Assembly (NCBI GenBank): GCA_944320495.1
Contig: CALUHR010000001.1
Span: forward strand, 21,697 to 85,696
Direction of reading: 5' to 3'
Source of the DNA: Candidatus Methanomethylophilaceae archaeon
GTDB taxonomy: Archaea; Thermoplasmatota; Thermoplasmata; Methanomassiliicoccales; Methanomethylophilaceae
Length of the DNA: 64,000 nt
The notes beneath the pieces were generated by a model, which was not told the origin of the DNA, did not search any database, and saw nothing but the letters and a program-made list of their open reading frames with translations. Below are positions 1 through 64,000 of the stretch, piece after piece (positions within the stretch are counted from its first letter, which is position 1; each line of letters opens with the position of its first letter). The position numbers were made by a program, and so were the translations under genes.

Positions 1-531
1 AAGCCCTCCGCCGACGGCTACCACGCGGAGATAGCGGCGAAGCTGGCGCCGCTTATGGAGCCCAACATGCCGCTGGTGCTCCTCGGCCCCGGGTTCGAGA
101 AGGAGACCCTCTCGGAGGACCTGAAGAAGGCGGATCCGTCCGCGTTCGGCAGGATGTACGTCTACCACACCGGTCAGTGCGGGATGGCGGGGATCAACGA
201 GCTCCTCAAGGGGGGCATGGGCGCCGACGTCCTCAGGGACTCCGCGGTCGGAACGGAGATCGAGGCCGTGGAGAGGCTGATGGCCGAGATATCCAAACCC
301 AACGGCCTGGGGACCTACGGGACCCAGGAGGTGATGGACGCCGCCATGGCCGGAGCGGTCGACACGCTGCTGGTGCTCGACTCCAAGGTCCGCGAGCAGG
401 ACATGGACGACGTGGTCCGCGCCGTGGAGTCCCAGAAGGGCAGCGTCATCGTGGTCTCGGGGCAGCACGACGGCGGTCGCGCCCTCGCATCCCTGGGGGG
501 CATGGGAGCCATCCTCAGGTACCGTCTCCGA
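1..531 (+). CDS. pelA: mRNA surveillance/ribosome rescue protein pelota (C-terminal part)
   Basis: This is the C-terminal 176 residues of archaeal pelota, which with aABCE1 rescues stalled ribosomes. The frame is open from base 1, so the N-terminus lies outside the window. Family hallmarks are the GTYGTQEVMDAAMAGAVDTLL segment near residues 104-124, the VVSGQHDGGRALASLGGMGAILRY ending, and the expected pelota finish right after AILRYRL. No TGA, TAA or TAG follows; the codon at the expected end is CGA (529-531), and without it the frame runs on into the next gene for 425 more codons. TATA-like sequence lies after the CGA, so the downstream gene is probably transcribed separately. Identity is secure; the end at CGA is inferred from family length and from the same pattern elsewhere in the window. 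Confidence 0.85.
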
Positions 532-544
532 CGTCTCGCCGAGC

Positions 545-567
545 TTATATATCGCGCATTTATATGG
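545..567 (+). promoter_or_regulatory. Probable TATA elements upstream of the homocitrate-synthase-like gene
   Basis: Two AT-rich TATA-like stretches, TTATATAT (545-552) and ATTTATATGG (558-567), stand out in GC-rich sequence between the expected pelota end and the ATG at 622. They argue that this DNA is intergenic rather than the linker of a fusion protein. Confidence 0.5.
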
Positions 568-621
568 CGGGTCAGCGAAGGCCGTGCCAATGCGGGCATG
601 GACCATTCGGATGGGATGCAT

Positions 622-1806
622 ATGAAGACCAAGAGCGAGGTAGTAGAACGTCTGAACGCCCCCCTCTGCATCTGCGACTCCACCCTCGGAGCCGGAGAGC
701 AGGCCGCCGGTGTGGTGTTCTCGAACATCGAGAAATACAGGATCGCGCAGCACCTGGACAACGCCGGCGTCCCCCAGCTGGAGGTCGGGAACCCGATGGT
801 GGGTACCGAGGAGAAGACCGCCGTGAAGCACATCGCCCACATGGGGCTCAGTGCATCCGTCATGTCCACCAACAGGGCGGACATCGCGGACATCAACGCC
901 AGCATCGAGTGCGACGTGGACGCCGTCTCCATCTCGCTCCCCACCTCCCAGCTCCAGATGGCCGAGATCCTCGGCAAGGACTCCAACTGGGTGCTCGACA
1001 AGGTCTTCGAGGCCGCTTCGTACGCCGCGCAGCACGGCCTCTACATCTGCTGTGTCGCGGAGGACGCCTCCAGGGCCGACCTCGGTTTCCTCATAGAATA
1101 CGCCAAGGCCGCCAAGGACGCCGGCGCCGACAGGTTCGGCTACGCGGACAGCATAGGCGTCGAGGATCCCTTCACCTGCAACGAGCGCATCAGGATGCTC
1201 AAGCAGATCTCCGGAATGGACGTGGAGATCATCACCCGCAACGACTTCGGCATGGCCACCGCGAACACCGTCGCCGCCGTCAAGGCAGGGGCCAGGTTCG
1301 CCAGGGTCACCGCGATGGGAATCGGCCCCAGGGCCGGATGTGCCCCGCTGGAGGAGGTCGTCATGGCCTCCAAGCACGTCCTCGGAATGGACACCGGCGT
1401 GGACACCGCCAAGCTCCGCCCAGTCGCCGAGTCCGTGTCCGTAGCCTCAGGCATCTCCATCTGGCCCAGCAAGCCCATCATAGGATCCAAGTGCTTCGCC
1501 CAGGAGACCGGGTTCGTCAACAACCCCGCCGTCACGGAGCCCTACGACCCCGCAGAGGTCGGAACCGAGAGGTCCCTGGTCATCGGAAAGCACTCCGTCA
1601 GGAATACCATCGTCGCCGCCATGAGCGACATGGGCATCGAGATCAGCAGGAACGATGCGGAGAACCTCCTCGTCCTCGTGAGGAAGGCCTCCTCCCAGAT
1701 GCACCGCTGCCTCAACCAGAGCGAGCTGTTCCTGCTCTACGAGGATATGATGTCCGGCAACAACACCTTCGACGACGTCCCCGTCCAGGACGCATCAGTC
1801 CAGTGA
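622..1806 (+). CDS. NifV/homocitrate-synthase-like DRE-TIM protein lacking canonical catalytic residues
   Basis: A 394-residue protein of the homocitrate/isopropylmalate synthase superfamily. The TIM-barrel start (DSTLGAGEQAAGVVFS, residues 19-34), the NDFGMATANTVAAVKAGA region (about 207-224) and the NifV-like C-terminal domain (VIGKHSVRNTIVAAMSDMGI) are clear. Active enzymes carry TLRDGEQ, whose Arg and metal-binding Asp are catalytic, and an HxHND metal motif. Here the first reads TLGAGEQ (G23, A24) and the second ITRND (I204, R206), and GERAGN reads GPRAGC. Metal binding and aldol condensation therefore look lost, which suggests a regulatory or altered role. The ATG at 622 is chosen because homology starts just after it; ATGs at 598 and 616 are also in frame. 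It ends in TGA and has no in-frame CGA. Confidence 0.75.
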   Translation: MKTKSEVVERLNAPLCICDSTLGAGEQAAGVVFSNIEKYRIAQHLDNAGVPQLEVGNPMVGTEEKTAVKHIAHMGLSASVMSTNRADIADINASIECDVDAVSISLPTSQLQMAEILGKDSNWVLDKVFEAASYAAQHGLYICCVAEDASRADLGFLIEYAKAAKDAGADRFGYADSIGVEDPFTCNERIRMLKQISGMDVEIITRNDFGMATANTVAAVKAGARFARVTAMGIGPRAGCAPLEEVVMASKHVLGMDTGVDTAKLRPVAESVSVASGISIWPSKPIIGSKCFAQETGFVNNPAVTEPYDPAEVGTERSLVIGKHSVRNTIVAAMSDMGIEISRNDAENLLVLVRKASSQMHRCLNQSELFLLYEDMMSGNNTFDDVPVQDASVQ

Positions 1807-1865
1807 AACCTCTCCGGCCCTCCGGGGCCGGAATTATGCTATTCCTCATGTTCTAAGGTATTAAT

Positions 1866-1895
1866 ATCTAATCAGATACCATCAACAATATAAAC
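1866..1895 (+). promoter_or_regulatory. Promoter of the winged-helix regulator with a small inverted repeat
   Basis: An AT-rich stretch holds AATATAAAC (1887-1895), a TATA box about 28 bases before the ATG at 1919, which fits a leaderless transcript. Just upstream ATCT-AATC-AGAT (1866-1877) is an inverted repeat that could be an autoregulatory operator. The operator role is a guess from position. Confidence 0.4.
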
Positions 1896-1918: not shown

Positions 1919-2299
1919 ATGACCATCCTGAGGGTAAGCGAACTTATCGAATGCAAGCACATGACGAGCATACTCGCCTGTCTGTACATGCGCGGATCCA
2001 TGGGCAAGAGCGAGATCTACGACACGATCTCCAACAGCCCCAACATGGCACTGAAGCTCCGCATCCTCTCCGATGAGGGGCTGGTGGAGTCGAACCAGGT
2101 GGGGAGGCGCACCGAGTACAGTCTGACCGAGAAGGGGAGCTCCGTCGCGGAGAAGCTCTGCGGGCTGGAGGAGCTCGTCTACGGGAGGGTCGGGGACCTG
2201 AACCACCTGGAGGAGGGGACAATCCATCTGGACGGGGACGTCCCCGACGAGACCCGCGACTGGTTCGAGGACCGCAGGAGGGGCTGTTGTCCCCTGCGA
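1919..2299 (+). CDS. Winged-helix transcriptional regulator
   Basis: A 126-residue DNA-binding protein. Residues 10-90 form a winged helix: helices around TSILACLYMRGSMGKSEIYD and ALKLRILSDEGLVES, followed by the wing RRTEYSLTEKGSSVAEKL. The layout is that of small archaeal PadR/MarR-like or HxlR-like regulators. No canonical stop exists; the frame stays open antisense to paaK for 320 more codons. A CGA at 2297-2299 sits exactly against the paaK stop complement at 2300, so the two convergent genes meet with no gap or overlap. It may control the neighbouring paaK, whose leader holds a perfect inverted repeat at 3620-3636; that link is inference. Confidence 0.75.
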
Positions 2300-6482: not shown

Positions 6483-7061
6483 ATGGGACAGCAGGACGTC
6501 TGGGACTCGTTCTACCGCTCCAACGGCCGGGCGTGGAGGGGCAACTGCAGGATGCCGGACCCGCTGGGAGGCGGGGGCGACGCCCTCGACCTGGGGTGCG
6601 GGAGCGGCAAGAGCGTGTCCACGCTGATCGACATGGGCTACAGGGCGGTCGGCCTCGACTTCTCGGATGAGGCCGTGTCCATGTGCAGGGAGAGGTTCGG
6701 CGGGGCGGCGGAGTTCGTCTCCGGCGATGTGCTGGCACTGCCGTTCGATGACGGTTCCTTCGACTATGTGACGGCTGTCCATGTGCTCGAGCACCTGACC
6801 GACGAGGCTCTCCGTACGGCTGCGGGGGAGATCGCGAGGGTCCTGCGCCCGGGCGGATACGCCTTCGTCAGGGACTTCGCCCCGGGGGACCTGAGATCGG
6901 AATCCAGGGAGGGGTCCGACATCAGGTACATTCACCGCACCCCCGAGGAGCTGGTCTCAGCGTTCGGGGACGTGGAGGTCGTGTCGGCTGGTGTCGTGGA
7001 GGAGAAGACGCGGTTCGGGGCGGTCCGCCGCCGTTCCGAGGTCCTCCTGAGACGCAGGCGA
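6483..7061 (+). CDS. Class I SAM-dependent methyltransferase
   Basis: A 192-residue methyltransferase. Motif I is ALDLGCGSGKSVSTLIDMG (residues 34-52), with the acidic LDF after strand 2, then GDVLALPFDDGSFDYVTAVHVLEHL (about 80-104) and VLRPGGYAFVRDF, typical of the UbiE/type-11 family. Substrate unknown. The start is the ATG at 6483; no SD is obvious. No canonical stop occurs: the frame passes straight into the zinc-ribbon gene at 7113, after an in-frame CGA at 7059-7061 where the protein should end (RSEVLLRRR). A TATA-like CCTATATG lies at about 7082-7089 between the CGA and the next ATG, against a true fusion. Confidence 0.8.
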
Positions 7062-7469: not shown

Positions 7470-7990
7470 TGGCAGTCTACCGCGGGAAGTACATACTCGA
7501 GGGTCTCGGAAGCATAAGCCCCGAGATGGAGCACAACCTCGACATCGCCTACGACATCTGCATGTCCTACAAGGGGGACTTCCCCTGCGAGATGTGCGGG
7601 AGGTGCTGCCACCAGCCCCACATAGTCGTGAGGCCGGAGGAGATCGACCGCGTCTCCACGGCCGCGGGCATCCCCCTTCCCGTCTTCATGACCGAGTACC
7701 TGGTACGCATGCCGGACGGAAGGTTCCTGTTCAGGAAGACCGATCCGTGCGCGTTCCTAGGGAAGGACAACAGGTGCACCATCTGGAAGGACCGTCCTCA
7801 GATCTGCGACGACTTCCCCTACGCGGTCTCGATGTTCATGAGCCGCGTGTATCTCGCGCTCACGAATCCTGACGCGGACATCATGTCCCTCATATCCTAC
7901 ATGGATGACGAGTGGCCGTGCACTCGCGTCATCAAGGCGGACATAGCCTCCAAGATAGAGGCGGCCCGCAAGGACGTCGTCGTCCAGCGA
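7469..7990 (+). CDS. YkgJ-family cysteine-cluster (Fe-S/zinc) protein
   Basis: A 173-residue protein with the YkgJ signature CEMCGRCCHQP (residues about 31-41) and later cysteines in DPCAFLGKDNRCTIWKDRPQICDDFP, the usual CxxxCxxCC...C...C pattern for a metal or Fe-S cluster. Function is unknown for the family. The start is coupled to the upstream zinc-ribbon gene. No canonical stop near the natural end: a CGA at 7988-7990 closes it just inside the convergent hydrolase gene, an 11-base overlap. Otherwise the frame would run about 27 codons further, antisense to the hydrolase. Confidence 0.78.
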
Positions 7991-8836: not shown

Positions 8837-10075
8837 ATGTCCGAGTCCAAGAAGAGGATCCTTCTGATGGTCCTCGACGGTGCCGGTGACCGCGCCTGTC
8901 CCGAACTCAGGGGTCTCACCCCGTTGCAGCACGTCAGGACGCCGAACCTGGACTGGTTCGTCGAGCACGGGATCGCCGGGCTCTGCGATCCCATATCGCC
9001 CGGGGTGCGCGCCGGCAGCGACACCGCCCATCTCTCCATCCTGGGGTATGACGCCCGGGCCGTGTACACCGGCAGGGGTCCTTTCGAGGCCATCGGGGCG
9101 GGTGTGGACATACAGCCCGGCGATGTGGCGTTCAGATGTAACTTCGCCACCGTCAACAGCGACATGGAGATCCTGGACCGCAGGGCAGGCAGGATAAGGG
9201 AGCCTGAGACGGAACAGCTCGCCGAGGCGCTGGACGGCATAGAGATAGACGGGATCGAGTGCTCGGTCCACGCCGGAACGGAGCACAGGGCGGTGCTCGT
9301 CCTGAGGGGGGACGGGCTTTCGCCCGATGTCACGGACTGCGATCCGGGGGAGGACTCCCATCTGCTCAGGTGTGAGCCGCTCACCGAGGAGGCGCAACTC
9401 ACCGCGGACGTCGTCAACGGATTCCTGGACGAGGCCTACGAGAGGCTAAGGTCTCACACCGTCAACAGGAAGAGGTCCGCCGCCGGCCTCCCTCCGGCCA
9501 ACATTCTGGTCCCCCGTGGGGCTGGCGGATATCCCGACATCGAGTCGTTCCAGGAGAAGTACGGCATCAGCGCAACCTGCGTTGCCGGTGTCGGTCTCGT
9601 CAAGGGCATATGCAAGGTCTGCGGACTGGACGTCTATCCGCTCCCGCCAGTCTGCGACGGGGGCATGGACTCTGATCTCATCATGAAGATGGAGGGAGTC
9701 CTCGAAGCTCTCGAGGAGTACGATTTCGTCCTGATGAACATCAAGGCCCCGGACGTGGCGGGGCATGACGGCGACGCCAAGGCGAAGAGCGAGGTCATCA
9801 AGCGTATAGACGCGGCGGTGGGATTCTTCCGTTCCAGGATGCCTGAGGACCTGGTCGTCGTGATTACCTGCGACCACTGCACCCCGTGCTCGCTCCAGGA
9901 CCATAGTGGCGATCCGGTGCCCATAGCGTTCTACACCCAGGGCATGATCTGGGACGATGCCGGGGAGTTCAGCGAGACCGGATGCTCCAGGGGCATGGTC
10001 GGGAGGATCAGGGCGACAGACATCATCCCGATCTGCATGGACCTGGCAAACCGCACGTCGAAGTTCGGATCGTGA
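8837..10075 (+). CDS. apgM: 2,3-bisphosphoglycerate-independent phosphoglycerate mutase, archaeal type
   Basis: A 412-residue ApgM that interconverts 3- and 2-phosphoglycerate in glycolysis/gluconeogenesis. The alkaline-phosphatase-fold metal motifs are present: LLMVLDGAGDRA (N-terminal Asp), GSDTAHLSILGYD (catalytic Ser/Thr region), FVLMNIKAPDVAGHDGD and VVVITCDHCTPCSLQDHSGDPVP (Asp/His metal ligands). Length is normal. The ATG at 8837 is chosen over the GTG at 8816 because homology begins at KKRILLMVLDG. The stop is TGA, and no in-frame CGA occurs in 412 codons. The convergent pilin-like gene overlaps its last 6 bases. Confidence 0.92.
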   Translation: MSESKKRILLMVLDGAGDRACPELRGLTPLQHVRTPNLDWFVEHGIAGLCDPISPGVRAGSDTAHLSILGYDARAVYTGRGPFEAIGAGVDIQPGDVAFRCNFATVNSDMEILDRRAGRIREPETEQLAEALDGIEIDGIECSVHAGTEHRAVLVLRGDGLSPDVTDCDPGEDSHLLRCEPLTEEAQLTADVVNGFLDEAYERLRSHTVNRKRSAAGLPPANILVPRGAGGYPDIESFQEKYGISATCVAGVGLVKGICKVCGLDVYPLPPVCDGGMDSDLIMKMEGVLEALEEYDFVLMNIKAPDVAGHDGDAKAKSEVIKRIDAAVGFFRSRMPEDLVVVITCDHCTPCSLQDHSGDPVPIAFYTQGMIWDDAGEFSETGCSRGMVGRIRATDIIPICMDLANRTSKFGS

Positions 10076-10522
10076 GCACAGGCCCAGTTGTACCGTGAGG
10101 CTACCTCCTGTGGTGACCGGGACCGTCAGTCCCGCCGAGATGTCCGGTGTTCCGTAACCGTCCCCGATGCTCGTCCCCAGGACGTCACCGGATGGTGCCG
10201 AGAACGACAGATCCAGCAGATACGGTCTCCCCTTGCAGAAAGCATCCAGAGACTCCTCGAGATATTCCAGCGCCTCGCCCTTTCCCGTGACCAGGGACAG
10301 AGCCGCCATGTCGGACAGGCGGACCAGCGTGTCGTCCCCCTCCGACATGTCCGACATGCGGACCTTGGAGGACATCACGTCCTCCAGGAACCCGTAGGCG
10401 TCCCTGTCGTCATCCGCACCGGTGTCCGCGACCTGGGTGACCACGGAGGCCGCGATCATTATGACGAAGATGAACAGCATGGCGTCGACCATGGCGACGA
10501 ATCCGCGGTCGCTCGTGCGCAC
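10070..10522 (-). CDS. Type IV pilin-like or pseudopilin membrane protein A
   Basis: A 150-residue protein starting at GTG 10522: a short charged leader (RTSDRG) followed by one long hydrophobic helix (FVAMVDAMLFIFVIMIAASVV) and an extracytoplasmic domain ending SLTVQLGLCS. This is the shape of archaeal type IV pilin-like proteins, although no clear class III peptidase site can be assigned. It overlaps the preceding pilin-like gene by 10 bases and probably belongs with the ATPase/TadC operon at 13590-16728. The end is a CGA (complement of 10070-10072), immediately before the convergent apgM TGA. With no stop there, the frame continues 208 codons antisense to apgM. Confidence 0.65.
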
Positions 10523-13593: not shown

Positions 13594-15347
13594 AACTGCG
13601 CCTGCCGCCGTTCGCGACCATCATCCGCCCGTCGCCGGAGGACGATTTCGTCATCCCAGGGACCAAGGGCGGGGGACAAAACCCGCCCGGGAGACCTCCG
13701 TCCGCGCTCCAGAGGGCAGGGGGCAGCCCCTCGGCGTTCTCCGAGGCCTTCACGGTGCTCATGGGGGAGAACGTTCGCACCAAACCGTCATACACGGACT
13801 GCTGGATAGCATCGGTCCCCGAGCTCCGCCCGATCGCGTCGTACATGACAGACATGGGCTCCGTCCTCATCGGGCTGTCAGAGGGCGGTGAGACCGTGTA
13901 CTCCGTCACACCGAGGGAGTACGCGTACCCCGATCCGCTAAACGCGGTGGTGATGGACGTCATCGACGGGATCCGCGACGTGTACAGGGACGGCGGTGGG
14001 AGTCTGGACCGCGACACGGTCATGGGCATGACCCGCTCGGTCCTGACAGATAGGTGGGACGACCTGGAGAGGGCGTGCGGGGGCGGGGACGTGGAGTCGG
14101 TCATGAGGGACGTCTGCGCCATTGCGTACCGCCATTCCGTCGGCGCGGGGATATTCGAGGTCCTGCTGGCCGACCGCCACATCGAGGACATCTATGTGGA
14201 CGCACCTTGCAGCATGAACCGCATCCACGTCACGGTGAACGGGATCAACGGTCTGAACTCCCACATCAGATGCTCCACCAATCTGATGGCGGAGGAGCGC
14301 GAGGTATCCAACCTCCTGAACATCCTGAAGAGGGACAGTGGCCTTCGCTTCTGCAGGTCCTGCCCCGTCCTTGAGACGGATATGCGCGGGTTCGACGCGA
14401 GGGCGACCGTGGTGGGCTACCCGCTCAGCCCCAGGGGGAACGCGATTGCCATCAGGAAGCACTCCGTACGCCCGTGGACCCTTTCCCGTTTGATCGCCAA
14501 CGGCACCGTCAGCCCGAGGGCAGCCGGCATCCTCTCGTTCATAGTCAACAGCAGGGCGACCGTCCTGATATGCGGGGCGCGCGGGGCAGGCAAGAGCGCC
14601 CTCCTCAGCGCCCTGATGTTCGAGTTCCCGCTGAGCCAGAGGATACTCACCATCGAGGACACCCTGGAGCTGCCTGGAGACCACATGAGGAGGATGGGCT
14701 ACAAGGTGCAGACCATGCTGGTGGACGACCGCATCCAGGGGTCCGTCTCATCCCGCTCCGACGAGGCGTTGCGCGTGTCCCTGAGGCTGGGGGAGTCGGC
14801 GATAGTCATGGGGGAGGTCCGCGGGGAGGAGGCCAGGACGCTCTATCAGAGCATGCGCGCGGGCCGCGCCGGGAGCGCGATCATGGGCACGGTGCACGGC
14901 GACTCCGCCGCATCCGTCTACCAGAGGATGGTCTTCGACATGGGCATCCCACCCGAGGCGTTCGGCGCCACGGACATACTGGTGACCCTCGGGACGGTGA
15001 GGGACAGGCGCACGGGGAACCTCATCCGCAGGGTTAACGAGCTGGTGGCCACCGGTACATCCCCGGGAGAATTCCTGGATGTCTCAGGGGTGGACGGGCT
15101 TCTCGCATCGCCGTTCGCAGAGAGGGCCCTGTCCTCCCTTCAATTGGGCCGCAGGGACGTCGTGAAGGAGATCAGGGCGAGGTCGATGATGCGCTCGTAT
15201 CTGGCGTCCCTCGGCACCGAGGACGAGGGGTTCCTGGGACCGGAATGGGTCCTGGCGTCGAACGAGATCCTCGCCGGAATGCCCCAGTCGGCTTCCGCGG
15301 AGGAAGCCCTGGCCGTGCTGAAGGGGAGGACCGGTAGGGATGACCGA
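13590..15347 (+). CDS. Type II/IV secretion system ATPase (VirB11/GspE/TadA-like)
   Basis: A 585-residue archaeal pilus-assembly ATPase. After an N-terminal domain, the core shows Walker A LICGARGAGKSALLSAL (about residues 328-344), the Asp box RILTIEDTLEL (about 353), Walker B/His region SAIVMGEVRGEEARTLYQSMRAG (about 404-426) and IMGTVHGDS. It powers assembly of pilin-like subunits with the TadC membrane protein downstream. The A-loop lysine and the glutamates are intact. There is no canonical stop at the junction; a CGA at 15345-15347 ends it 8 bases inside tadC. Otherwise it would extend 42 codons into tadC. No other in-frame CGA among 585 codons. Confidence 0.88.
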
Positions 15348-16728
15348 TCCGAGGAGGCTGACCAACGAGGGCCCGACGGTCGTCGGGCTGATGACCTCCG
15401 TCATAGAGTCGGGGGGATCCCTGGATACGGCGGCCAGGGCGGTGTCCGAGGAGGGGCCGAGACTCTCCGCTGAGCTGTTCTCCGGAGCCGTGAGGCTCAC
15501 GGACACCAAGGGCTCCGTCGGAATCTCTCAGGCGCTATCCGAATCGCTTTCCGTTCTGCCGGAGTCCGCTTCGGGCTACAGGCAGGCGATGCTGCTGTGC
15601 ATCTCCGCATCCGAGGCGGCCGAACCGCAGGAGAGGCTCAGGATCCTCAAGGAGGCTTCCGATGTGGCCCTGGACGCCGTGCGCATCATTGGGGAGAAGT
15701 ACGCCGCAGGCCTCTCCACGCCGTGCATGGCGGTCTTCGGCCTGGGGATAATGGCACCTATGATCCTGATGTCCATACTGCCGATCATGGGCCTCGGCGG
15801 GATGTTCGCTGAGATGCCGGTGGACAGCGGCACGATGCTCATGGCGACTCTGGTCCTGATCCCGGCGGCGATTCTCTGCCTGGCGTACTGGCTGCGCCAA
15901 TCGAACCCGTTCCTGGAGCGTTCGGGGAGTCCCCGCGACGCGGTGTGCGCACTACCACTCCTCACAGCAATCCCGCTCTATCTGGCGATGATGTCCCTGC
16001 GCACGGGGGCCGTGGAGGCCCTGATTCTCTCGATCGCCCCGTCCGCGGTGGCCTGTCTGATAATGATGTTCGACGGCCGCAGGGCGGACCAGGCCAGGGC
16101 CAGGTCCGAGAAGGGGCTGAGGGACTGCGTCTTCGAGCTTGGCAACTCCCTGCTGGGAGGAGACAACTTCGAGACCGTGGCCGTGGAGGCTGTGTCGTCC
16201 AGGGTCGAGTGCAGGGATGTGGGCACTGCGCTCAGCAGGGAACTCGACCTGTGCAGGGGAGATGTCCGCGGTGCGATCAGGAGATCGGTGGGACCGGTAT
16301 CGCCCGAGGTCTCCAGGACCCTCTGCGACATCCAGCACTGCTCCGAGAAGGACACCGAGGACGCGGGGAGGTTGGCCATCGCCGTGGGGAGGCAGTACCA
16401 GAACACGTCCAACATCAGGAACGAGCTGGGCCTGAAGCTCAAGGGGATGACCGACATGATGGTGGGCACGGCGATGCTGTTCGCCCCGATGGTCCTCGGG
16501 ATGAGCACATCGATGCTCGGGCCGCTAAGCGAGATATCCGGATACGCCGGCCTTGAGGGCACGGAGGTGGTGCTGGCCGTGTATCTCGTAGAGCTCTGCG
16601 CGATCATCGCCGTGCTCACGTCGAGCCTGGGGGACGGCGATGGCATCAGGGGGATGGTGTGGAGGTTCTGTCTCTCGTGTCCGATCGCCCTGGTCGTGTT
16701 CTGGTTCTGCATCGGGGTCCAGCTCCGA
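15340..16728 (+). CDS. TadC-like secretion system membrane protein
   Basis: A 462-residue polytopic protein of the GspF/TadC type that forms the membrane platform for the pilus ATPase. It has hydrophobic clusters around residues 128-150 (VFGLGIMAPMILMSILPIMGLGG), 165-182, 205-240 and three near the C-terminus, separated by cytosolic helical domains with the T2SSF-like pattern LGNSLLGGDNFETVAVEAV. It overlaps the ATPase by 8 bases. At its end the frame reads CAG-CTC-CGA-AGG-TGT-TAA; the CGA at 16726-16728 fits the rule seen elsewhere, but the TAA two codons later makes this case uninformative alone. No other in-frame CGA. Confidence 0.8.
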
Positions 16729-16760: not shown

Positions 16761-17264
16761 ATGGACGGCAGGACCAGACTGTTGGTGGCGGGATGCATCG
16801 CATCTGGGGTGGTACTCGCCCTGATGTTCCTGTCGCCCCTCCTATCCCCCTACGGTCTCTTCAGGGGGCTTGACGGGTCCCCCGGATTCATAGACGGAGG
16901 CTGGGAGGGCGGAGGCCCGGCCAGTCTGGCGTATCTGCTGGGGGATCTCGTCTGTCATCAGGAGGAGGCCAGGAGCCTGATCCTGAACGGCTCCCAGATG
17001 CCCGTCTGCGCGAGGGACACCGGGATCCTCATAGGTCTCACGATCGGTTTCGCCGCATGTCTGCCCATCGGCAACAGGCTGGCGGACAGGCGCATCGCGG
17101 CCCTGGGCGTGGTGCTCGTAGCGGTCATGGCGGTCGAGTGGCTTGTGGAGACGACGGGCTTCGATTCGCAGGCCTGCAGGCTCATCTCTGGGGTTTCTGC
17201 CGGGGTCGGTGCGAGCCTATTTCTGGCTTGGATGCTATATAGGCAGGATGACCGGGGAGAGCGA
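16761..17264 (+). CDS. DUF2085 family membrane protein
   Basis: A 167-residue membrane protein with the DUF2085 signature: VCHQEEARSLILNGSQMPVCARDTGILIGLTIGF (about residues 70-103), i.e. CHQ and the P-V-C-A-R-D-T-G motif, with four predicted membrane helices. Function unknown; members are common in methanogens. It sits 32 bases after tadC in the same operon. The frame has no canonical stop at the natural end; a CGA at 17262-17264 closes it 17 bases inside the next gene. Without it the frame runs 154 codons out of phase through that gene. Confidence 0.75.
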
Positions 17265-17970
17265 CGCGGGTATCGACTGGGAGTACGGCAGGGCCGCCTC
17301 CGATGCGGTGGAGTGGCTCCTGAAGGAGGGATTCCTGAAAGAGGACGACTGCTCCATGAACGTCGCCTGCGGTCGCGGCGGATTCGCCGTTCCGATGAGC
17401 AGGGCGGTCCGTGTGCTGGTCTGCATGGACAGCAGCAGGGACTCCCTCGACATAACCGGTCAGCGCTGCGCCGGGGGATGTCGCACCGAGCTCTTTCAGC
17501 AGGACTGGCGCTCCTACGTCCCCGCCAGGGGGAGGTACGACTCATGTGTCATGTCGCCGTCGTACCTGTGCTTCAACATGGAGGCCATACGCAGGATCGA
17601 GACAGTCTCCAAAAGGGGATGCGCCGTGGTCTTCCCGCTAGAGTTCGACTACCGCAGGCTCCGGAAGGGATTCCTCCAGAGTCTCGGCGTCGATGCGGGC
17701 TTCCTGTCGATGCCGGAGTTCCCTGACCCGCGCCCGTTCGCCGTCTGGCTGTCGGAGAAGGGCAGGAACATGGAGACGCGTCGCTTCCAGTCCACAGTGG
17801 AGTGTCCCGACGAGGTCTTCAGGACGGCGATCGTCCGCGATTCCGTCCTTCACGGGGCCGACGAGGCCGCCGCAGCCTCCATGGCCGACAGATACGTCTC
17901 GAAGGTCAGCAGGGGCGGTGCGGTCAAGTACAAGTTCTCCGCCAACGTCGTTGCCTGGAACATGGTGCGA
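17248..17970 (+). CDS. SAM-dependent methyltransferase-like protein
   Basis: A 240-residue Rossmann-type protein. The SAM-binding loop is SMNVACGRGGFAVPMSR (about residues 36-52), followed by VLVCMDSSRDSL (acidic after strand 2) and YDSCVMSPSYLCFNMEAI, as in class I methyltransferases. Substrate unknown; the position as last gene of the secretion operon is the only context. The ATG at 17248 overlaps the DUF2085 gene. The end is a CGA at 17968-17970 (VVAWNMV), with a TAA six codons later, so termination at CGA is not independently provable here. Confidence 0.65.
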
Positions 17971-44371: not shown

Positions 44372-45739
44372 ATGAGCAACGTCTGTCCCTTGGACTACAG
44401 GTACGGTCGCGAGGACATGAAGAATGTCTTCAGCGAGGACAGCCGCATACGCAACGAGATGCTCGTCGAGGCCGCCCTCGCCAGGGCGCACGCCTCTCTC
44501 GGCACCATCCCGCAGTCTGCGGCCGACGAGATCACCCGCGCTGCGACGCTGGACGTCGTCAGCGTCGACAGGATAAAGCAGATCGAGTCGGAGACCCGCC
44601 ACGACCTCATGGCCATGGTCAAGGCCGTGACCGAGAAGTGCGAGGGGGATGCCGGCAAGTACGTCCATCTCGGAGCAACATCAAACGACATCGTGGACAC
44701 AGCCACCGCCCTCCAGCTCAAGGAGGCCATGGGCATCGTCCTCGAGGACGTCGACAACCTGATCATGACGTTCGCCGCCCTGGCCAAGAGGGAGAGGGAC
44801 ACCCTCGAGATCGGCAGGACGCACGCGCAGTTCGCCATCCCGATCACCTACGGGTTCAAGGTCGCCGGATACATCGCGGAGATGATCAGGCACAGGGAGA
44901 GGATCATAGAGGCCATGCCCAGGGTGTGCGCCGGCAAGATGGCCGGTGCCGTCGGTACTGGAGCGGCCCTCGGAGCCAACTTCTTCGAGGTCCAGCGCAG
45001 GGTGATGTCCGATCTCGGGCTCACCTACGAGCCCGCGGCTACGCAGGTCGTCGGACGCGACAGGTACACCGAGGCCATATGCCTCATGGCGAACATCGCC
45101 GCATCCCTCGAGAGGTACTGCACCGAGGTCAGGAACCTCCAGAGGTCCGAGGTCGCCGAGGCGTCCGAGTACTTCGACGTGTCCAAGCAGGTGGGCAGCT
45201 CCACGATGGCTCAGAAGAGGAATCCGATGAACTCCGAGAACGTCTGCGGTCTGGCCCGCGTCATCCGCGGATTCGTCACGCCCGCCTTCGAGAGCCAGAT
45301 TCTCTGGCACGAGAGGGATCTGTGCAACTCCTCCACCGAGAGATTCACCCTGCCCCATGTGTTCGTCCTCATCGACGAGATTCTCAAGAAGACCGCCTGG
45401 ATCTACTCCGGGCTGGAGATCCATCGCGACAGGATGCTCGAGAACATCGAGTCCTCCCGCGGACTGGTCATGGCCGAGCCCCTCATGATGAAGCTCACCG
45501 AGAAGGGCATCGGCAGGCAGGACGCGCACGAGATCATCCGCTCATCCGCCATGGTCGCCGAGGACACCGGCAGGCACCTGAGGGATGTCCTGATGGAGAG
45601 GGAGGACCTCAAGGGTGTCCTCACCCCGGAGGAGATCGTCGCCACCATGGATGCCTCCAACTACGTTGGCGGAGCCAGGGAGATCGTCGACAAGATGGTC
45701 GCCGCCGCCGAGGACGTCGTTGGAAGGAAGGTCGAGCGA
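44372..45739 (+). CDS. purB: Adenylosuccinate lyase
   Basis: A 455-residue lyase of AMP and IMP synthesis. Fumarase-superfamily signatures are KYVHLGATSNDIVDTATALQLKEA (catalytic His region), EIGRTHAQFAIPITYGFKVAGY and SSTMAQKRNPMNSENVCGLAR (signature loop with catalytic Ser). It starts at ATG 44372 with a TTTATAAGG TATA box near 44270. There is no canonical stop: the frame at the family end reads GTC-GAG-CGA, and the CGA (45737-45739) overlaps the next ATG as CGATG, the exact analogue of the common TGATG junction. Without it the protein gains 30 residues unlike any lyase. Confidence 0.93.
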
Positions 45740-50708: not shown

Positions 50709-52085
50709 TTGCCGAGCGATCACGAAATCTATGGTACGATGCAGGTCGGCCAGCTCTTCGCCAGATGCGCGGTTCCGGGCGTCATCTCTGGTCTGGTGTG
50801 GGCGCTCTGCTCCATCGCGGACGGGATCTTCGTGGGCAACTATCTCGGCAGCGATTCGCTGGCCGCCGTGAATCTGGCTTGGCCCGTCATGACCGTCGTC
50901 ATGGCGCTGGTGGATATGATAGCGGCCGGCTCCTCGGTCAGGATCTCGATGCATCTCGGCTCGGGGGATGTCGAATCAGCCAGGAGGGTCTTCTCGGGAT
51001 CGGTCCGGTTCATTGTCGTCATATCGGTTCTTTTCACCCTGTTCGGGGTGTTTCTCGCCGATCCGGTTGTACGCGTATTCGGCGCCGAAGGTGAGCTGGC
51101 CGAAGTCACTGCCCAGTACATCGCCGTATTCAGTCTGTTCGCTCCTGTGGGTCTGTTGTTCTTCGCCACGGACAACTACCTGAGGATATGCGGAGCCGTC
51201 GGGCTGAGCATGTGGATCAACGTGGGCGTCACGGTCCTCAACATAGGGCTCCTGGCACTGCTGATCGGCGTGATGGGGTACGGGACTTGGGCTAGCGCTT
51301 TCGCCACGGGCTTCAGCGTCTGCGTGGGTTCGGTGGTCGCCCTGGTCCCCTTTCTCCGCGGGAGGTACGTGCTCACATTCGTTAGGGGATGGATGGATCT
51401 GCGCACCACGGCCCGCGTGATGTACAACGGGATCTCCACGTTCTTCAACGGTGTCTCCGGGTCGCTCTACATGATGGTGGCTAACACTGTGCTCCTGGCG
51501 ATCGCGGGCAATGCCGGCGTCTCCTCCTTCGGGATCATCATGTACGTGAACTCGGTGATCGGGTCGCTGTTCTTCGGTACGGCGTCGGCCATGCAGCCGG
51601 CGCTCAGCTACAACCACGGTGCTGGCGACGGTCACAGGGTGAGGTCGCTTTCCGCGGTCATGTTCGCCGTGTCCATGGCGATGGGCGTCGGCATGTGCGC
51701 CGCATGCATCCTATTGGACGACGGTATCGTGTCTGTCTTCCTGAGCGACGGCGACTCATCCGTGGCGGCGATGGCCGCTGCCGGTCTCTCGATATATGCG
51801 TTCTCGTACCTCACGATGTGGGCGTCCACGGAGGTCAACCAGGTCCTGGCTGCGACGGACCTCCCGACGTACGCGCTGTCTGTCGGCGTGACGTCCCAGC
51901 TCGTCATACCGGTACTGCTCCTGCTCCCGATGTCGGAATGGGGGGTGGACGGCGTGTGGTGGTCGATGGTCCTTGGTTATGCGGTGTCCGCTGTGTTCGC
52001 GGCGGTCATGCTGTTCCTGGGCATCCGCAGGGGGATATTCTCGGCAGGATCCCCGTGCCCTCCGTCCGATCCCGATGCATTCCGA
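50709..52085 (+). CDS. MATE family efflux transporter
   Basis: A 458-residue MATE protein with 12 helices. N-terminal HEIYGTMQVGQLFARCAVPGVISGLVWALCSIADGIFVGNYLGSDSLAAVNLAWP is diagnostic, and the second half repeats it (GISTFFNGVSGSLYMMVANTVLLAIAGN). It would export drugs or metabolites with Na+ or H+. TTG 50709 is chosen since GGAGGT lies 6 bases upstream; ATG 50739 is the alternative. The C-terminal frame reads GCA-TTC-CGA; the CGA at 52083-52085 is taken as the end and a TAA lies nine codons later. No earlier in-frame CGA. The spacer 50476-50708 holds no other gene. Confidence 0.85.
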
Positions 52086-60030: not shown

Positions 60031-60548
60031 TCGTCGAGCCCCTGCATCCCCAGGACGTCGAGGCCGCTCGGTCGCTGTATCTGGATGCGTTCCCGGAGTA
60101 CGAGCGCGCGGAATGGGAAGCTCTCGTCAACAATTCGGGATGGGGGGATGCAGAGCTGCTCGGGATATACGATGCCGGCCTTGCGGGCATCTCGTATGTG
60201 ATATTCGACGAGACGTTCCTCTTCGTCCTCTATCTCGCCATCGAACCCTCCCGCAGGGGGACGGGCGTGGGCTCCGGGGCATTACGCATCATCGAGAGCA
60301 TGTATTCCCATGGCAGGACATTCCTCAACGTAGAGCCCACGGACGAGGCCTGCGACAATCCCGAGCAGCGTTTACGCAGGGTGGCCTTCTACGAGCGCTG
60401 CGGTTACTCCGCAGCATGGAAGCTCGTCATCGACGAGAACGAGAAGTACACGGTCATGTGCAAAGGGGTCCCGATAACCCCTGACGAGATGGAATCCTTC
60501 AGGGTCAGGCACGGCTTCTCAAGACTGTTCGGGCATCAGGGGGAACGA
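60027..60548 (+). CDS. GNAT family N-acetyltransferase
   Basis: A 173-residue acetyltransferase: LHPQDVEAARSLYLDAFPEYERAEWEAL at the N-terminus and the acetyl-CoA loop VLYLAIEPSRRGTGVGSGALRII (about residues 71-93, the R-x-x-G-x-G/A pattern), then FYERCGYSA. Substrate unknown. It is coupled to the nitroreductase gene. No canonical stop at the natural end: a CGA at 60546-60548 (after GHQGE) closes it seven bases before the convergent UbiX-like gene end; otherwise the frame runs 29 codons antisense into that gene. Confidence 0.85.
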
Positions 60549-60555
60549 TCCGACG

Positions 60556-61104
60556 TCGTTTCCATCTCTCATACAGTGAGTGCTCGATCCCGACCTGGTC
60601 CAGGCACCTGCCCACGACTATGTCCACGATGTCGCTGACGGTCCTGGGTCTGGGATAGAACCCCGGGTTGGCATCGACGATCGTGACGCCCAGTCTAGCG
60701 AGCTTCAGTTCGTTCTCCAGCATGATGGCGCTCTTGGGCGTCTCCCTGACCAGCAGGACGAGCCTCCTGTTCTCCTTTATGCACACCGATGCCGCACGGG
60801 ATATGAGGGTGTCGGCTATGCCGTTGGCGAACTTGGCAACGGAAGATTCGCTGCACGGGGCGACGAACATCGCTTCGTAGCGGAAGCTTCCGGATGCGAT
60901 AGAGGCGAACATCTCGTCGTCGGAGAAGACCTGGTCGGCCATGGACTCGACCTGTTCGACCGTGTAGTCGGTCTCGGCGGGGATGATCTCCCTGGCGGTG
61001 CGGGACATGACGAGTATCCTCTCGCCCTTCAGCTCCTGAAGGAGCCTTATCCCGTAGATGGCACCGGATGCGCCCGATATGGCGACGACGTACCTCACGA
61101 CCAT
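60556..61104 (-). CDS. ubiX: UbiX-like flavin prenyltransferase
   Basis: A 182-residue flavoprotein of the UbiX/PadI family, which makes prenylated FMN for UbiD decarboxylases. RYVVAISGASGAIYGIRLLQEL (FMN-binding start), FRYEAMFVAPCSESSVAKFANGIADTLISRAASVCIKENRRLVLLVRETPKS and NPGFYPRPRTVSDIVDIVVGRCLDQVGIEH are near-diagnostic. ATG 61104 is chosen; 61110 is possible. There is no stop at the family end; a CGA (complement of 60556-60558, after YERWK) ends it, with a second CGA nine codons on. Otherwise it would extend 17 residues past a point where UbiX proteins stop. Confidence 0.9.
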
Positions 61105-62247: not shown

Positions 62248-62257
62248 TACTGAAAAT

Positions 62258-62283
62258 GCCGGCATCCGTAGGGGGATGCCGGC
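62258..62283. terminator. Bidirectional hairpin between convergent genes
   Basis: GCCGGCATCC-6-base loop-GGATGCCGGC is a perfect 10-pair stem in the 64-base gap between the convergent genes. Confidence 0.7.
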
Positions 62284-62311
62284 GGAATAAACGGGAACAC
62301 CCGGTGGACGG

Positions 62312-63307
62312 TCAGTCCATTGCCGAGTTTATCGCAATTTCCCCTATGTCCATGGAGTACTCGGCGATCCTCTTGACGGAGCTGGCGATGAGCTCCGCTG
62401 CCATAGCGGACTTGCCAGTGAGGTCGTCGGCCATCGCGCTGATGTCCCTGGAGCGTCTGACGAGGTCCTCCCCGCGCTCGATGCATGCGTTGGCCTTGTC
62501 CATGTCCTTGGATGACCAGGTACCGACGGAGTCGACCATCAGGGTGATGACCTCCCTGCCGGTGGAGAGTATGTCGTCGTCCAGGCTGCTGGGGTCATCG
62601 ATAAGAGGCCTCAGGTTGGATGCGAGAAGCACGGCGTGGTCACCGATCCTCTCGAGGGCGCGGCTGATGCTGCCGCAGCGGGAGATCTCGCAGAGGTCCA
62701 TGCCCATGCGGCGGGAGATGGTTATGTCCTTCTGGTGGATGTTGACCTGGCGTGAGATGAGCCAGTCTATCCTGTCCACCTCGCGGTCCCTGTCGGACAT
62801 GCCGTCCAATAGTCTGATGTCCTTGTTTTCGAGGCCGTCCATGGTGTCGGTCAGCATGTTGCGAACGAGCACCTTCATCCTCTCGACGGATTTGGCAGGC
62901 TTCATCTCGCCCTGGTCCATAAGGTCCTTGATGACGATGCTGTTGTCGCTCTCTTCCATTATCTCCAGACCGATGGCGGTCTGTGCGAAGGAGGAGGCGG
63001 CAGAAGCGGCCATGCTTGAGAGTCCCGATTCCGATTTGAGCACGATGGAGTCATGTCCCGCGATGTATGCTCCGACGAGCTTCCTGTAGAGGAAGTCCCT
63101 GTCGGTGATACCGTCAGCCTCGATGACCTTGACGGAAGCCGCGGATGCGGTCTGCTCCCCGCCGGGGTAAATCACCATGCTGCCGTCAGGCTGGGGCTGC
63201 AGTCCGACGGTGTCGTTCTTCTTCAGTCCGACGGAATCGGCCCAGTCCTTCGGCAGCGTGATCATGAAGGAGGAGCCACCGGTAATCTGAATCTTCCTTA
63301 GGTCCAT
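62312..63307 (-). CDS. phoU: PhoU-family regulator with N-terminal AbrB/SpoVT domain
   Basis: A 331-residue protein. Residues 1-45 form an AbrB-like DNA-binding hairpin (RKIQITGGSSFMITLPKDWADSVGLKKND), and the rest two PhoU three-helix units (SCGSISRALERIGDHAVLLASNL with the E-R-I-x-D-H motif near 220, and SVKRIAEYSMDIGEIAINSAMD at the end). AbrB-PhoU fusions are common in archaea and regulate phosphate uptake. ATG 63307 is chosen with GGGAG upstream; the Met at 63337 would lie inside the TATA region. A PstS-like gene follows divergently. The stop is TGA. Confidence 0.88.
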   Translation of the reverse strand: MDLRKIQITGGSSFMITLPKDWADSVGLKKNDTVGLQPQPDGSMVIYPGGEQTASAASVKVIEADGITDRDFLYRKLVGAYIAGHDSIVLKSESGLSSMAASAASSFAQTAIGLEIMEESDNSIVIKDLMDQGEMKPAKSVERMKVLVRNMLTDTMDGLENKDIRLLDGMSDRDREVDRIDWLISRQVNIHQKDITISRRMGMDLCEISRCGSISRALERIGDHAVLLASNLRPLIDDPSSLDDDILSTGREVITLMVDSVGTWSSKDMDKANACIERGEDLVRRSRDISAMADDLTGKSAMAAELIASSVKRIAEYSMDIGEIAINSAMD

Positions 63308-63756
63308 ATGCTCCCTACCGGATTTCATCTTTATCATTATAAAGATAATTAATAGAGTATATATTATAATATATTGACTATATATTCATCAAGGAATCAA
63401 GAGCACAACATATCGGGATGATCGAATCGGATTTTGCAAAGGTCATGTATATGCACTTATCAACGATTATGTCCGATATTATCTCAGGAACCATTATCCA
63501 TTATAGAGTCCAATATGATTTGAAAATACAGAGAATGGTACACAGTTGGATTAGATACCATAATGATAATAGAAAAATATCCACAAATATCTGATTTATT
63601 TATAAACAACGGATCTCGCTTATAAAACCCAATATGTATTCTAAGTACAATATGTATAATTACATATTATCTATATCTATACAAATAAATCAATATAATA
63701 AATCGGCTAACTATATACCAAGAACCGAGGTAGCGGGATATTGAGGTGTCACTACC
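63308..63756. promoter_or_regulatory. Long AT-rich divergent promoter region of phoU and pstS-like genes
   Basis: 449 bases without a plausible gene. The AT content is far above the rest of the window, with many TATA-like runs (CTTTATAATG near 63333 toward phoU; TATATATTATAATATATTG near 63357-63376; TATAATTACATATTA near 63653). A ribosome site GAGGTG (63744-63749) precedes the TTG at 63757. This is likely a phosphate-responsive control region; the regulator would be the adjacent AbrB-PhoU protein. Confidence 0.55.
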
Positions 63757-64000
63757 TTGGACAAAAAGATAACCGCAATCATTGTGGTCGTCATCATAAT
63801 CGTTGCAGCCGCTGCCGTCTATGTAGGCTTCGGAGGAAGCAACGACGGAAACGATGATGGCAACTCTGATGTTCATGCCGTCACCCTCGATGGTGTCGTC
63901 GCTTCCGAGGACAACGTCCTCAACGGAACCTACCCCATCCAGAGGAACCTGATCGTCTGCACCCTTGGCGAGCCCACCGGCAACGTCAAGAACTTCATCG
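63757..64000 (+). CDS. PstS-like phosphate-binding protein, start only (truncated by window end)
   Basis: Reading from TTG 63757 (SD GAGGTG seven bases before; an in-frame TGA at 63742 excludes an earlier start) gives 81 codons. A membrane helix (ITAIIVVVIIIVAAAAVYVGF, residues 5-25) and an Asn/Asp/Gly-rich linker are followed by LDGVVASEDNVLNGTYPIQRNL and GEPTGNVKNFI. These last segments match the C-terminal part of PstS, not its N-terminus, so the usual first 200 residues of the binding protein appear to be absent. It may be a small anchored remnant or accessory of the phosphate system. Confidence 0.6.
   Translation, partial: MDKKITAIIVVVIIIVAAAAVYVGFGGSNDGNDDGNSDVHAVTLDGVVASEDNVLNGTYPIQRNLIVCTLGEPTGNVKNFI

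What the first reader, a model, noticed from the sequence alone, without database searches (positions are those of the whole stretch)
1..64000. CGA behaves as a stop codon: 18 of about 60 genes end at an in-frame CGA and no other stop
Seen: at 18 gene ends the expected C-terminus is followed by in-frame CGA, not TGA/TAA/TAG. Positions (first base of the codon on + coordinates, minus genes by their lower base): 529, 2297, 7059, 7988, 7980(-), 10070(-), 10513(-), 15345, 16726, 17262, 17968, 29720(-), 31916, 36480(-), 45737, 52083, 60546, 60556(-). The other ends are 41 TGA, 1 TAA, 0 TAG. I walked about 7,000 sense codons of 16 genes (paaK1, apgM, U32, GspE, TadC, nrdJ, pncB, ADH, NAT, etfA, leuS, MATE and others) and found no interior CGA. 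Known: no stop reassignment of CGA is described to me; Arg codons are reassigned to other amino acids in some bacteria. Inference: CGA is a termination signal here, by reassignment, by an unassigned codon with stalling, or by C-to-U editing to UGA. Four cases have a TAA within 16 codons and are only supportive (16726, 17968, 29720, 52083).
Basis: partly seen in the sequence, partly recalled or inferred. Interest (0 to 1): 0.97.

Follow-up and report, generated by a model that had tools for sequence, protein, structure and literature searches.

The report
CGA: a fourth stop codon in archaea
In one genus of methane-making archaea, many genes end at CGA, normally a codon for the amino acid arginine, at or within a few codons of the place where relatives have a normal stop codon; CGA has likely become a fourth stop signal, which would be the first such change known in a cell's own genome, and almost the only CGA left inside the genes sampled sits in the release-factor gene, likely as a self-control switch.

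Summary
All 18 CGA codons lie where stated. A codon-usage caller that scores CGA as neutral ends 13 of 46 window genes at CGA, and 56 of 345 in a 464 kb sample. In G014, of the same genus, 12 of 18 orthologues end there with TGA or TAA. Codon by codon, coding stops at CGA as at TGA: 35 of 36 against 159 of 161; the best other sense codon reaches 0.30. CGA is 1 of 81,350 confident coding codons. That one is Arg78 of aRF1, the release factor. It is CGA in 24 of 25 genus members. In 20 other members the tRNA is present with a broken 31-39 pair or C33. Inferred: aRF1 reads CGA as stop, competing with a weak tRNA; codon 78 is a prfB-like feedback site. Sense-to-stop change is known from mitochondria and plastids; my searches listed none for a cellular genome. 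No protein or RNA data exist here.

The parts
1..531 (+). 3' part of the pelota gene (starts before the window), ends at CGA 529
   Evidence: 29 of 36 blastp homologues end within 8 residues of the CGA, 1 at the next standard stop; G008 has CGA there too; reading through would fuse it to the next gene. Named pelota by eye and by weak aRF1 match
529..531 (+). CGA stop
   Evidence: G014 TGA at +1; G008 CGA at +0
2297..2299 (+). CGA stop
   Evidence: G008 CGA at +0; 0 of 4 standard-stop homologues end at this place
7059..7061 (+). CGA stop
   Evidence: G014 TAA at +9, G008 CGA at +0; 1 of 3 blastp homologues ends at the next standard stop
7988..7990 (+). CGA stop, convergent with 7980(-)
   Evidence: G014 TGA at +0, G008 CGA at +0
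7980..7982 (-). CGA stop
   Evidence: G008 CGA at +0 only
10070..10072 (-). CGA stop
   Evidence: G014 TGA at +1, G008 CGA at +0
10513..10515 (-). CGA stop
   Evidence: G014 TGA at +0, G008 CGA at +0; not called
15345..15347 (+). CGA stop
   Evidence: G014 TGA at +0
16726..16728 (+). CGA stop, TAA 3 codons on
   Evidence: G014 TGA at +0
17262..17264 (+). CGA stop
   Evidence: G014 TGA at +2; not called
17968..17970 (+). CGA, probable stop, TAA 7 codons on
   Evidence: no homologue support
29720..29722 (-). CGA stop
   Evidence: G014 TGA at +1
31916..31918 (+). CGA, possible stop
   Evidence: only; no homologue found and not called
36480..36482 (-). CGA stop
   Evidence: G014 TGA at +2, G028 CGA at -2
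45737..45739 (+). CGA stop
   Evidence: G014 and G028 TGA at +0
52083..52085 (+). CGA, probable stop, standard stop 10 codons on
   Evidence: 3 of 3 homologues end there; not called
60546..60548 (+). CGA stop
   Evidence: 1 of 1 homologue ends there; not called
60556..60558 (-). CGA stop, convergent with 60546
   Evidence: G014 TGA at +3

Best explanation
In this archaeon, which its named relatives place in the Methanomethylophilaceae, genes end at CGA where relatives have TGA, and CGA is likely read as a fourth stop codon by the release factor aRF1. CGA was likely first purged from coding sequence across the genus and the cognate tRNA-Arg(UCG) weakened (broken 31-39 pair or C33). aRF1 would then accept YGA, that is UGA and CGA, and TGA-to-CGA mutations at gene ends would become silent. 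The one sense CGA found in the sampled genes of this genome is codon 78 (Arg) of the aRF1 gene. There the weak tRNA and aRF1 itself are predicted to compete: much aRF1 would mean termination at codon 78, little aRF1 would mean read-through, a feedback loop like that of bacterial prfB but in frame. Where the codon was lost (G028, codon 78 is CGC), no tRNA-Arg(UCG) was found and CGA use as a stop is the highest of the five larger samples. Shown: positions, avoidance, ends of relatives, the aRF1 codon, the state of the tRNA. Inferred: recognition by aRF1, the competition, the feedback, the order of events.
For: (1) Ends in the G000 sample: TGA 274, CGA 57, TAA 12, TAG 3 of 346 called stretches; one of the 57 is aRF1 codon 78, so 56 of 345 ends; a stricter count gives 43 of 342. 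The gap from the last confident coding codon is alike for CGA (median 19) and TGA (21). (2) Codon-wise test: strong coding signal before and none after at 35 of 36 CGA, 159 of 161 TGA, best other sense codon 11 of 37; G008 16 of 17, G028 39 of 42, G026 9 of 10, G001 2 of 3. The one exception each in G000, G008, G001 and G026 is aRF1 codon 78; the three in G028 look like junctions of two genes in one frame. (3) Orthologue ends. (4) Behind CGA no protein constraint: substitutions G000 vs G008 by codon position 20, 21, 80 before and 15, 10, 6 after (12 genes), as for TGA 20, 25, 190 then 76, 79, 63 (44 genes). (5) No back-up needed: the next standard stop after CGA lies at median 31 (G000) and 27 (G028) codons, after TGA 32 and 26. 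(6) Assemblies of two sister species agree: CGA at 11 of 12 shared ends. (7) CGA in confident coding codons: 1 of 81,350 in G000, 1 of 7,194 in G001, 1 of 8,039 in G026 and 1 of 2,770 in G025, each time aRF1 codon 78; 0 of 39,267 in G028 (with L229 added, 2 of 44,162, both at one junction). (8) aRF1 codon 78 is CGA in 24 of 25 genus genomes, CGC in G028, and in the 24 it is the only CGA of the aligned gene. (9) G028: 43 tRNA hits, Arg anticodons UCU, CCU, GCG, CCG; Arg UCG is the only isoacceptor typed in G000 that is missing; G007, with CGA at codon 78, has it. (10) Terminal CGA prefers +4 T (30 of 57, against 22.6% of all CGA, p 1.2e-6); the aRF1 CGA is followed by C in 24 of 24, a weak context for UGA and part of prfB control (PMC5289835, abstract and opening text). 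(11) Private aRF1 changes in codon-reading motifs in CGA-using lineages: G28S in GTx (G000, G008), K60R in NIKS (G001), K66N and N67H beside NIKS (G028).
Against: No protein or RNA data: stop reading is inferred from DNA. tRNA-Arg(UCG) is present in G000, so CGA can still be read as Arg. NIKS is intact in G000 aRF1 and no change is shared by all CGA users: G025 (4 of 17 ends without aRF1 codon 78) has none in the named motifs, while G020 (S126A) and G018 (L121M) have one but 1 of 19 and 0 of 9 CGA ends. Low interior CGA is by itself no proof: G014 (2 of 57,262) and G007 (2 of 55,311) avoid it too, yet only 8 of 246 and 10 of 286 genes end at CGA there, mostly with a standard stop close behind (7 of 8 within 16 codons, 9 of 10 within 8). 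In 11 further genus loci pooled, coding stops at only 2 of 4 CGA. G008 has CGA at a conserved Arg of carB where G000 and G014 have CGT, and G007 and G014 hold one or two other interior CGA. Eight of the 18 G000 ends that agree with homologues have a standard stop within 12 codons; 1 of 21 agrees with the next standard stop (2 of 11 in G008). Codon constancy at aRF1 78 is not special as such: R186 is CGT, and R50, R162 and R189 are AGG, in 25 of 25. For nine genus genomes with CGA at codon 78 (G003, G009, G011, G012, G013, G016, G019, G024, G030) I did not find tRNA-Arg(UCG) by similarity or by a pattern that assumes U33, and made no full scan. The sample is 26% of the genome; G028 is 87% complete.
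Confidence: 0.85

Rival explanations
1. CGA is an unassigned, hungry codon: the tRNA is too poor, ribosomes stall at CGA and are rescued (pelota), so genes end there without true release.
For: tRNA-Arg(UCG) is defective in the 20 genus members where it was typed and was not found in G028; an unassigned CGG is known in Mycoplasma capricolum (cited in PMC8629427, passage and reference seen).
Against: Use at 56 of 345 and 52 of 148 gene ends, often without back-up stops, conserved between sister species, with a +4 T preference known from release-factor termination; stalling at so many ends would be costly. aRF1 codon 78 makes sense as a release-factor sensor, less so as a stall site.
Confidence: 0.07
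2. mRNA C-to-U editing turns CGA into UGA, so the code itself is unchanged.
For: CGA and UGA differ by this one change; editing would also explain avoidance inside genes and could give the same feedback at aRF1.
Against: No such genome-wide editing in archaea is known to me (recalled, not searched); it would have to act on CGA in many contexts; it gives no reason for aRF1 motif changes.
Confidence: 0.05
3. Artefact: base errors or misassembly turn TGA into CGA.
For: The genomes compared are largely metagenome assemblies, which can hold errors.
Against: Same CGA ends in the assemblies of two species (11 of 12); CGA ends in 8 of 16 named loci of the genus; a tRNA absence that matches.
Confidence: 0.01
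4. CGA stays Arg and proteins carry C-terminal extensions or fusions.
For: tRNA-Arg(UCG) exists in G000.
Against: No constraint after CGA; fusions with unrelated neighbours, e.g. pelota to the next gene; coding signal stops at CGA in 35 of 36 cases.
Confidence: 0.02

Closest known systems
Sense-to-stop UCA/UCG in mitochondria of sphaeroplealean green algae (PMC6821328; abstract and passages seen)
   Same: A sense codon is confined to gene ends, a cognate tRNA is missing, release factor changes correlate, codon disappearance is the proposed drive
   Different: Small organelle genomes with a bacterial-type mtRF1a; here a cellular genome of 1.77 Mb with an archaeal aRF1, and another codon
UUA/UCA stops in peDinoflagellate plastids (PMC12574857; passages seen), called there the first case outside mitochondria
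   Same: Sense-to-stop with no cognate tRNAs and a changed release factor
   Different: Plastid, not a cellular genome; no feedback codon in the passages seen
AGA/AGG stops of human mitochondria read by mtRF1 (PMC9810596; abstract and outline seen)
   Same: Arg codons become stops and a release factor reads them
   Different: One gene each and an extra factor; here dozens of genes per sample and one aRF1
CGA/CGG reassigned to Trp in Absconditabacteria and other Arg codon changes (PMC8629427; passages seen)
   Same: CGA loses its Arg meaning in a cellular genome
   Different: New amino acid, low GC; here a stop, at 61% GC. Codetta by its authors' statement cannot detect sense-to-stop (PMC9825746, passages)
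prfB programmed frameshift autoregulation (PMC12421855 abstract and outline; PMC5289835 abstract and opening text)
   Same: A stop read by the factor lies inside its own gene, followed by C
   Different: In-frame read-through by a weak tRNA instead of a frameshift; the codon is a former sense codon; archaeal factor

Membership tests
Sense-to-stop codon reassignment | Codon lies at the 3' ends of genes where relatives have standard stops | tested here: met
   12 of 18 window sites against G014; homologue ends
Sense-to-stop codon reassignment | Codon absent from the inside of genes | tested here: met
   1 of 81,350 coding codons in G000 (aRF1 codon 78), 0 of 39,267 in G028; samples, not whole genomes
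Sense-to-stop codon reassignment | Cognate tRNA lost | tested here: inconclusive
   Not lost in G000, though its anticodon stem is defective; not found in G028
Sense-to-stop codon reassignment | Changes in the codon-reading part of the release factor | tested here: inconclusive
   Private changes G28S, K60R, K66N and N67H in CGA users, none shared by all, and G025 without one
Sense-to-stop codon reassignment | Peptide release at the codon | not testable with these tools
   needs biochemistry
prfB-type autoregulation of a release factor | In-frame codon read by the factor inside its own gene | tested here: met
   CGA at aRF1 codon 78 in 24 of 25 genomes, if CGA is a stop
prfB-type autoregulation of a release factor | Programmed +1 frameshift | tested here: not met
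   The reading frame continues unshifted after codon 78, so it is not a member, only works alike
prfB-type autoregulation of a release factor | Weak context with C after the codon | tested here: met
   C in 24 of 24
prfB-type autoregulation of a release factor | Output falls as factor rises | not testable with these tools
   needs a reporter
Unassigned codon (as CGG in Mycoplasma capricolum) | Codon avoided throughout, ends included | tested here: not met
   56 of 345 and 52 of 148 gene ends

The most novel reading that the evidence does not exclude
A cellular genome has gained a fourth stop codon, CGA, caught at several stages across one genus: in G007 and G014 CGA ends few genes and mostly with a back-up stop; in G000, G008, G001 and G026 it stands alone at many ends while its one sense use found in the samples of G000, G001 and G026 is in the release factor gene, as a feedback sensor read by a crippled tRNA; in G028 sensor and tRNA are gone and the codon is purely a stop. 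Release-factor feedback would thus be what keeps the last sense use and the tRNA alive.
Probability: 0.6. Interest if true: 0.98.

Novelty: new variant of a known kind. Interest (0 to 1): 0.96.

Why it matters
The sense-to-stop changes that I found in print are in organelles (PMC12574857 calls plastids the first case outside mitochondria). A genome of about 1.8 Mb with CGA as a working stop would show that a cell's own genome can make this change, would give a series of living intermediates between sense and stop, and would offer a natural test of codon capture against ambiguous decoding. It would break the rule, recalled here, that archaeal and eukaryotic class 1 factors need U at the first position, and so give a handle on how aRF1/eRF1 read the codon. 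It would also mean that standard gene prediction overruns the true end in 5 of 44 (G001) to 52 of 148 (G028) sampled genes of the CGA-using species, and that screens such as Codetta, which cannot see sense-to-stop, leave a blind spot. Many named relatives come from rumen or gut samples.

Tried and rejected
Rejected readings. (a) First I took the gene at the window start for aRF1; it is pelota, and aRF1 is on contig 2. (b) (codon counts on tblastn HSPs) were spoiled by antisense frames and 5' extensions of ORFs and showed false interior CGA, TGA and TAG; replaced by the cleaned set and by the codon-usage caller. After cleaning, still held 2 CGA in 16,203 columns of G000, in HSPs that also carry stops in G000 and that I judge antisense. 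(c) (CGA rates from stop-to-stop ORFs of the named loci) was too noisy and not used. (d) One search lists 5 interior CGA in G000 and 7 in G008; by eye they are junctions of two genes in one frame (two CGA at one junction in three cases), apart from G008 carB. (e) The caller also counts an interior CGA as an end: one search showed one such in G000 (aRF1), two in G008 (aRF1, carB), one each in G014 and G007, and one each (aRF1) in G001, G026 and G025; counts in this report are corrected for these (G028 left at 52, with L266 12078 unclear). (f) I expected tRNA-Arg(UCG) to be missing in G000; it is not. (g) I expected one shared aRF1 change in all CGA users; there is none. (h) CGA ends outside the genus: L190 2 of 2, L222 1 of 2 and L202 2 of 2 agree with homologue ends, so low-level use may be family-wide, but L173, L182, L214 and one of three in L223 look like ordinary sense CGA. 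Pooled test, coding stops at CGA: 11 further genus loci 2 of 4; Methanomethylophilus-like 5 of 8; L195, L197, L200 3 of 5; Methanoplasma-like 1 of 10; L181, L182, L188 0 of 4; other families 6 of 18; too small to decide. (i) The +-12 codon criterion is weak because CGA is a frequent trinucleotide. (j) An aRF1 structure model was not made: it would not show first-base reading.

Full report
What the window is. The window is G000:C1:21697-85696, from an assembly of 1,768,794 bases in 14 contigs, 90.58% complete, 1.8% contamination. Relatives with named records place it in the order Methanomassiliicoccales, family Methanomethylophilaceae (aRF1 100% identical in the record of G008, 'uncultured Methanomassiliicoccales archaeon SI.A92.metabat-bins.58', and 82 to 89% in records that include 'Candidatus Methanomethylophilaceae archaeon'; lineage). 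I do not know the genus name.

The observation. It found 46 window genes, 33 ending at TGA and 13 at CGA. In 464 kb of G000 (26% of the genome, window included) it found 346 stretches: TGA 274, CGA 57, TAA 12, TAG 3; one of the 57 is the interior codon 78 of aRF1, which leaves 56 of 345. A stricter count gave CGA 43 of 342. The distance from the last confident coding codon to the end is alike for CGA (median 19) and TGA (21). Seventeen of the 18 window sites have at least one independent support; 31916 has none.

Not chance. For every codon I asked how often coding signal is strong for 30 codons before it and gone for 30 codons after it. In G000: TGA 159 of 161, CGA 35 of 36, best other sense codon (five or more cases) TTG 11 of 37, median of sense codons 0.12. 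CGA in G028 39 of 42, G008 16 of 17, G026 9 of 10, G014 5 of 5, G007 6 of 6, G001 2 of 3. The single exceptions in G000, G008, G001 and G026 are aRF1 codon 78. The three in G028 look like junctions of neighbouring genes in one frame; at one of them G014 has TGA in the same place ('KKDTLF*GDDM' in G014 against 'RKDTLF[CGA]GDSM' in G028), the other two (L229) I judged by eye. A pooled test of 11 further loci of the genus is small and weak: 2 of 4.

Ends of relatives. G014 orthologues of the window genes end at TGA or TAA at 12 of 18 sites. In a wider comparison of 70 aligned C-termini, 13 lacked a standard stop within 12 codons in G000 and 11 of these had CGA there; because CGA is frequent as a trinucleotide this count alone is weak. 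Of CGA-ended genes with homologues, the homologues end at the CGA for 18 of 21 in G000 (8 of the 18 have a standard stop within 12 codons; 1 of 21 fits the next standard stop, 2 fit neither), 9 of 11 in G008 (2 fit the next standard stop) and 17 of 17 in G028; genes without homologues in the set (22, 14 and 35) were left out. After CGA there is no codon-position bias in substitutions between G000 and G008 (12 genes), so the sequence behind it does not look like protein under selection. G008 has CGA at 11 of these 12 ends and AGA at one.

Inside genes. CGA occurs in 1 of 81,350 confident coding codons of G000, 1 of 43,027 of G008, 2 of 57,262 of G014, 0 of 39,267 of G028, 2 of 55,311 of G007, 1 of 7,194 of G001, 1 of 8,039 of G026 and 1 of 2,770 of G025. 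The one in G000, G001, G026 and G025 is aRF1 codon 78. The one counted in G008 is a conserved Arg of carB, CGT in G000 and G014; G008 has aRF1 codon 78 as well, missed by that count. Of the two in G014 one lies directly behind a TGA. With one more locus (L229) G028 shows 2 of 44,162, both at one gene junction. So CGA was purged also where few genes end with it; avoidance alone is not evidence for a stop.

The release factor. The eRF1 N-domain profile finds two genes in the assembly: pelota, whose 3' part opens the window, and aRF1 on contig 2. aRF1 codon 78 (conserved Arg of SIAARLK) is CGA in 24 of 25 genus genomes in the codon alignment and CGC in G028; in those 24 it is the only CGA of the aligned gene. 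The preceding two bases are CT and the following base is C in 24 of 24. Other Arg positions of aRF1 are also codon-constant (R186 CGT, and R50, R162, R189 AGG, 25 of 25), so constancy as such proves little; the point is that this one is CGA. In other genera of the family aRF1 carries none to four CGA at shifting positions, often R25; whether this means the same there is open. G028 aRF1 itself ends at CGA. Aligned with human eRF1 (human number = ours + 3 in the N domain; motif names in yeast numbering, which equals ours here, from PMC4482090, passages), CGA-using lineages have private changes in codon-reading motifs: G28S in GTx (G000, G008), K60R in NIKS (G001), K66N and N67H next to NIKS (G028). 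L121M, before YxCxxxF, is in G018, G026 and G028, and S126A in G020, although G018 and G020 show 0 of 9 and 1 of 19 CGA ends; G025 uses CGA and has none of these. The determinant is not settled.

The tRNA. G000 has Arg tRNAs UCU, CCU, GCG, CCG and UCG. The UCG one was typed in 21 of the 31 genomes of the genus, G000 and G008 among them, minus G028 where a full scan found none: 16 and G007, G010, G018, G026, which makes 20. In 15 of 15 printed the 31-39 pair is A.A or C.A; G010, G018 and G026 have the same stem letters (read by eye); G007 and G022 have C33 in place of U33. So 20 of 20 typed are abnormal. In G032, G036 and G053, outside the genus, the stem can pair, and in G034 the 31-39 pair can (by eye). 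For G003, G009, G011, G012, G013, G016, G019, G024 and G030 neither similarity nor a pattern that assumes U33 found it and no full scan was made. G028 was used as a test: since its aRF1 has no internal CGA, the tRNA should be dispensable. G007, which keeps CGA at codon 78, has it. G028 is 87% complete, so chance absence is possible.

A gradient. CGA ends, interior cases taken out: G014 8 of 246 (7 with a standard stop within 16 codons), G007 10 of 286 (9 within 8), G001 5 of 44, G000 56 of 345, G008 32 of 194, G025 4 of 17, G026 11 of 36, G028 52 of 148. Of 16 named loci of the genus analysed, 8 have at least one CGA end and 8 have none. In G000 and G028 a standard stop follows CGA no sooner than it follows TGA. 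Terminal CGA prefers +4 T (G000 30 of 57, G008 22 of 34, G028 25 of 52; p 1.2e-6, 9e-8 and 7e-4 against all CGA; against TGA ends p 5e-4, 9e-4 and 0.07; interior cases not taken out here).

Mechanism. Shown: the positions, avoidance, homologous ends, aRF1 codon, tRNA state. Inferred: aRF1 reads YGA; competition with the weak tRNA decides at codon 78 and sets the aRF1 level; loss of the loop frees the genome of the tRNA. Editing and stalling remain as rivals that only RNA and protein data can exclude.

Literature. Sense-to-stop changes in print: green algal mitochondria (PMC6821328), human mitochondrial AGR (PMC9810596), plastids of peDinoflagellates, called the first outside mitochondria (PMC12574857). 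Codetta's authors state that it cannot detect sense-to-stop changes (PMC9825746). Searches for CGA, stop codon, archaea, Methanomethylophil and Methanomassiliicoccales, for sense-to-stop and for aRF1 reassignment listed no report of this; the lists were read by title and start of abstract, were capped, and only open-licence full texts are held. The comparative genomics paper of the order (PMC4153887, passages) treats TAG, and its main text has no word that begins with CGA.

Noticed in passing
window 7980-7990 and 60546-60558: Two convergent gene pairs in which both genes end at CGA within about ten bases of each other.
   Followed up: no
L122 complement of 2229-2231 (G008): CGA at a conserved Arg of carB in G008, CGT in G000 and G014: strain variant, assembly error or a real ambiguous codon. 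Gene name by eye.
   Followed up: partly
L048 complement of 154-1950: A gene that by eye (no search made) looks like arginyl-tRNA synthetase lies directly beside aRF1.
   Followed up: no
L190, L202, L222 (other genera of the family): A few CGA gene ends with homologue support also outside the genus, among them strain 1R26, so low-level CGA stops may be family-wide.
   Followed up: partly
G000 sample: TAG ends only 3 of 346 called stretches; in this order TAG is known to serve pyrrolysine (PMC4153887 passages). Not examined here.
   Followed up: no
L391 (G007), L154 (G022): tRNA-Arg(UCG) with C33 instead of the nearly universal U33.
   Followed up: partly
L262 9149-9224 (G028): A second, low-scoring tRNA-Pro(UGG), 33 bits, near another one.
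   Followed up: no
aRF1 of genera outside g1 (L172-L222): aRF1 often has one CGA, commonly at R25, R78, R123 or R327, in genera where CGA is rare too: feedback sites that moved, or chance.
   Followed up: partly
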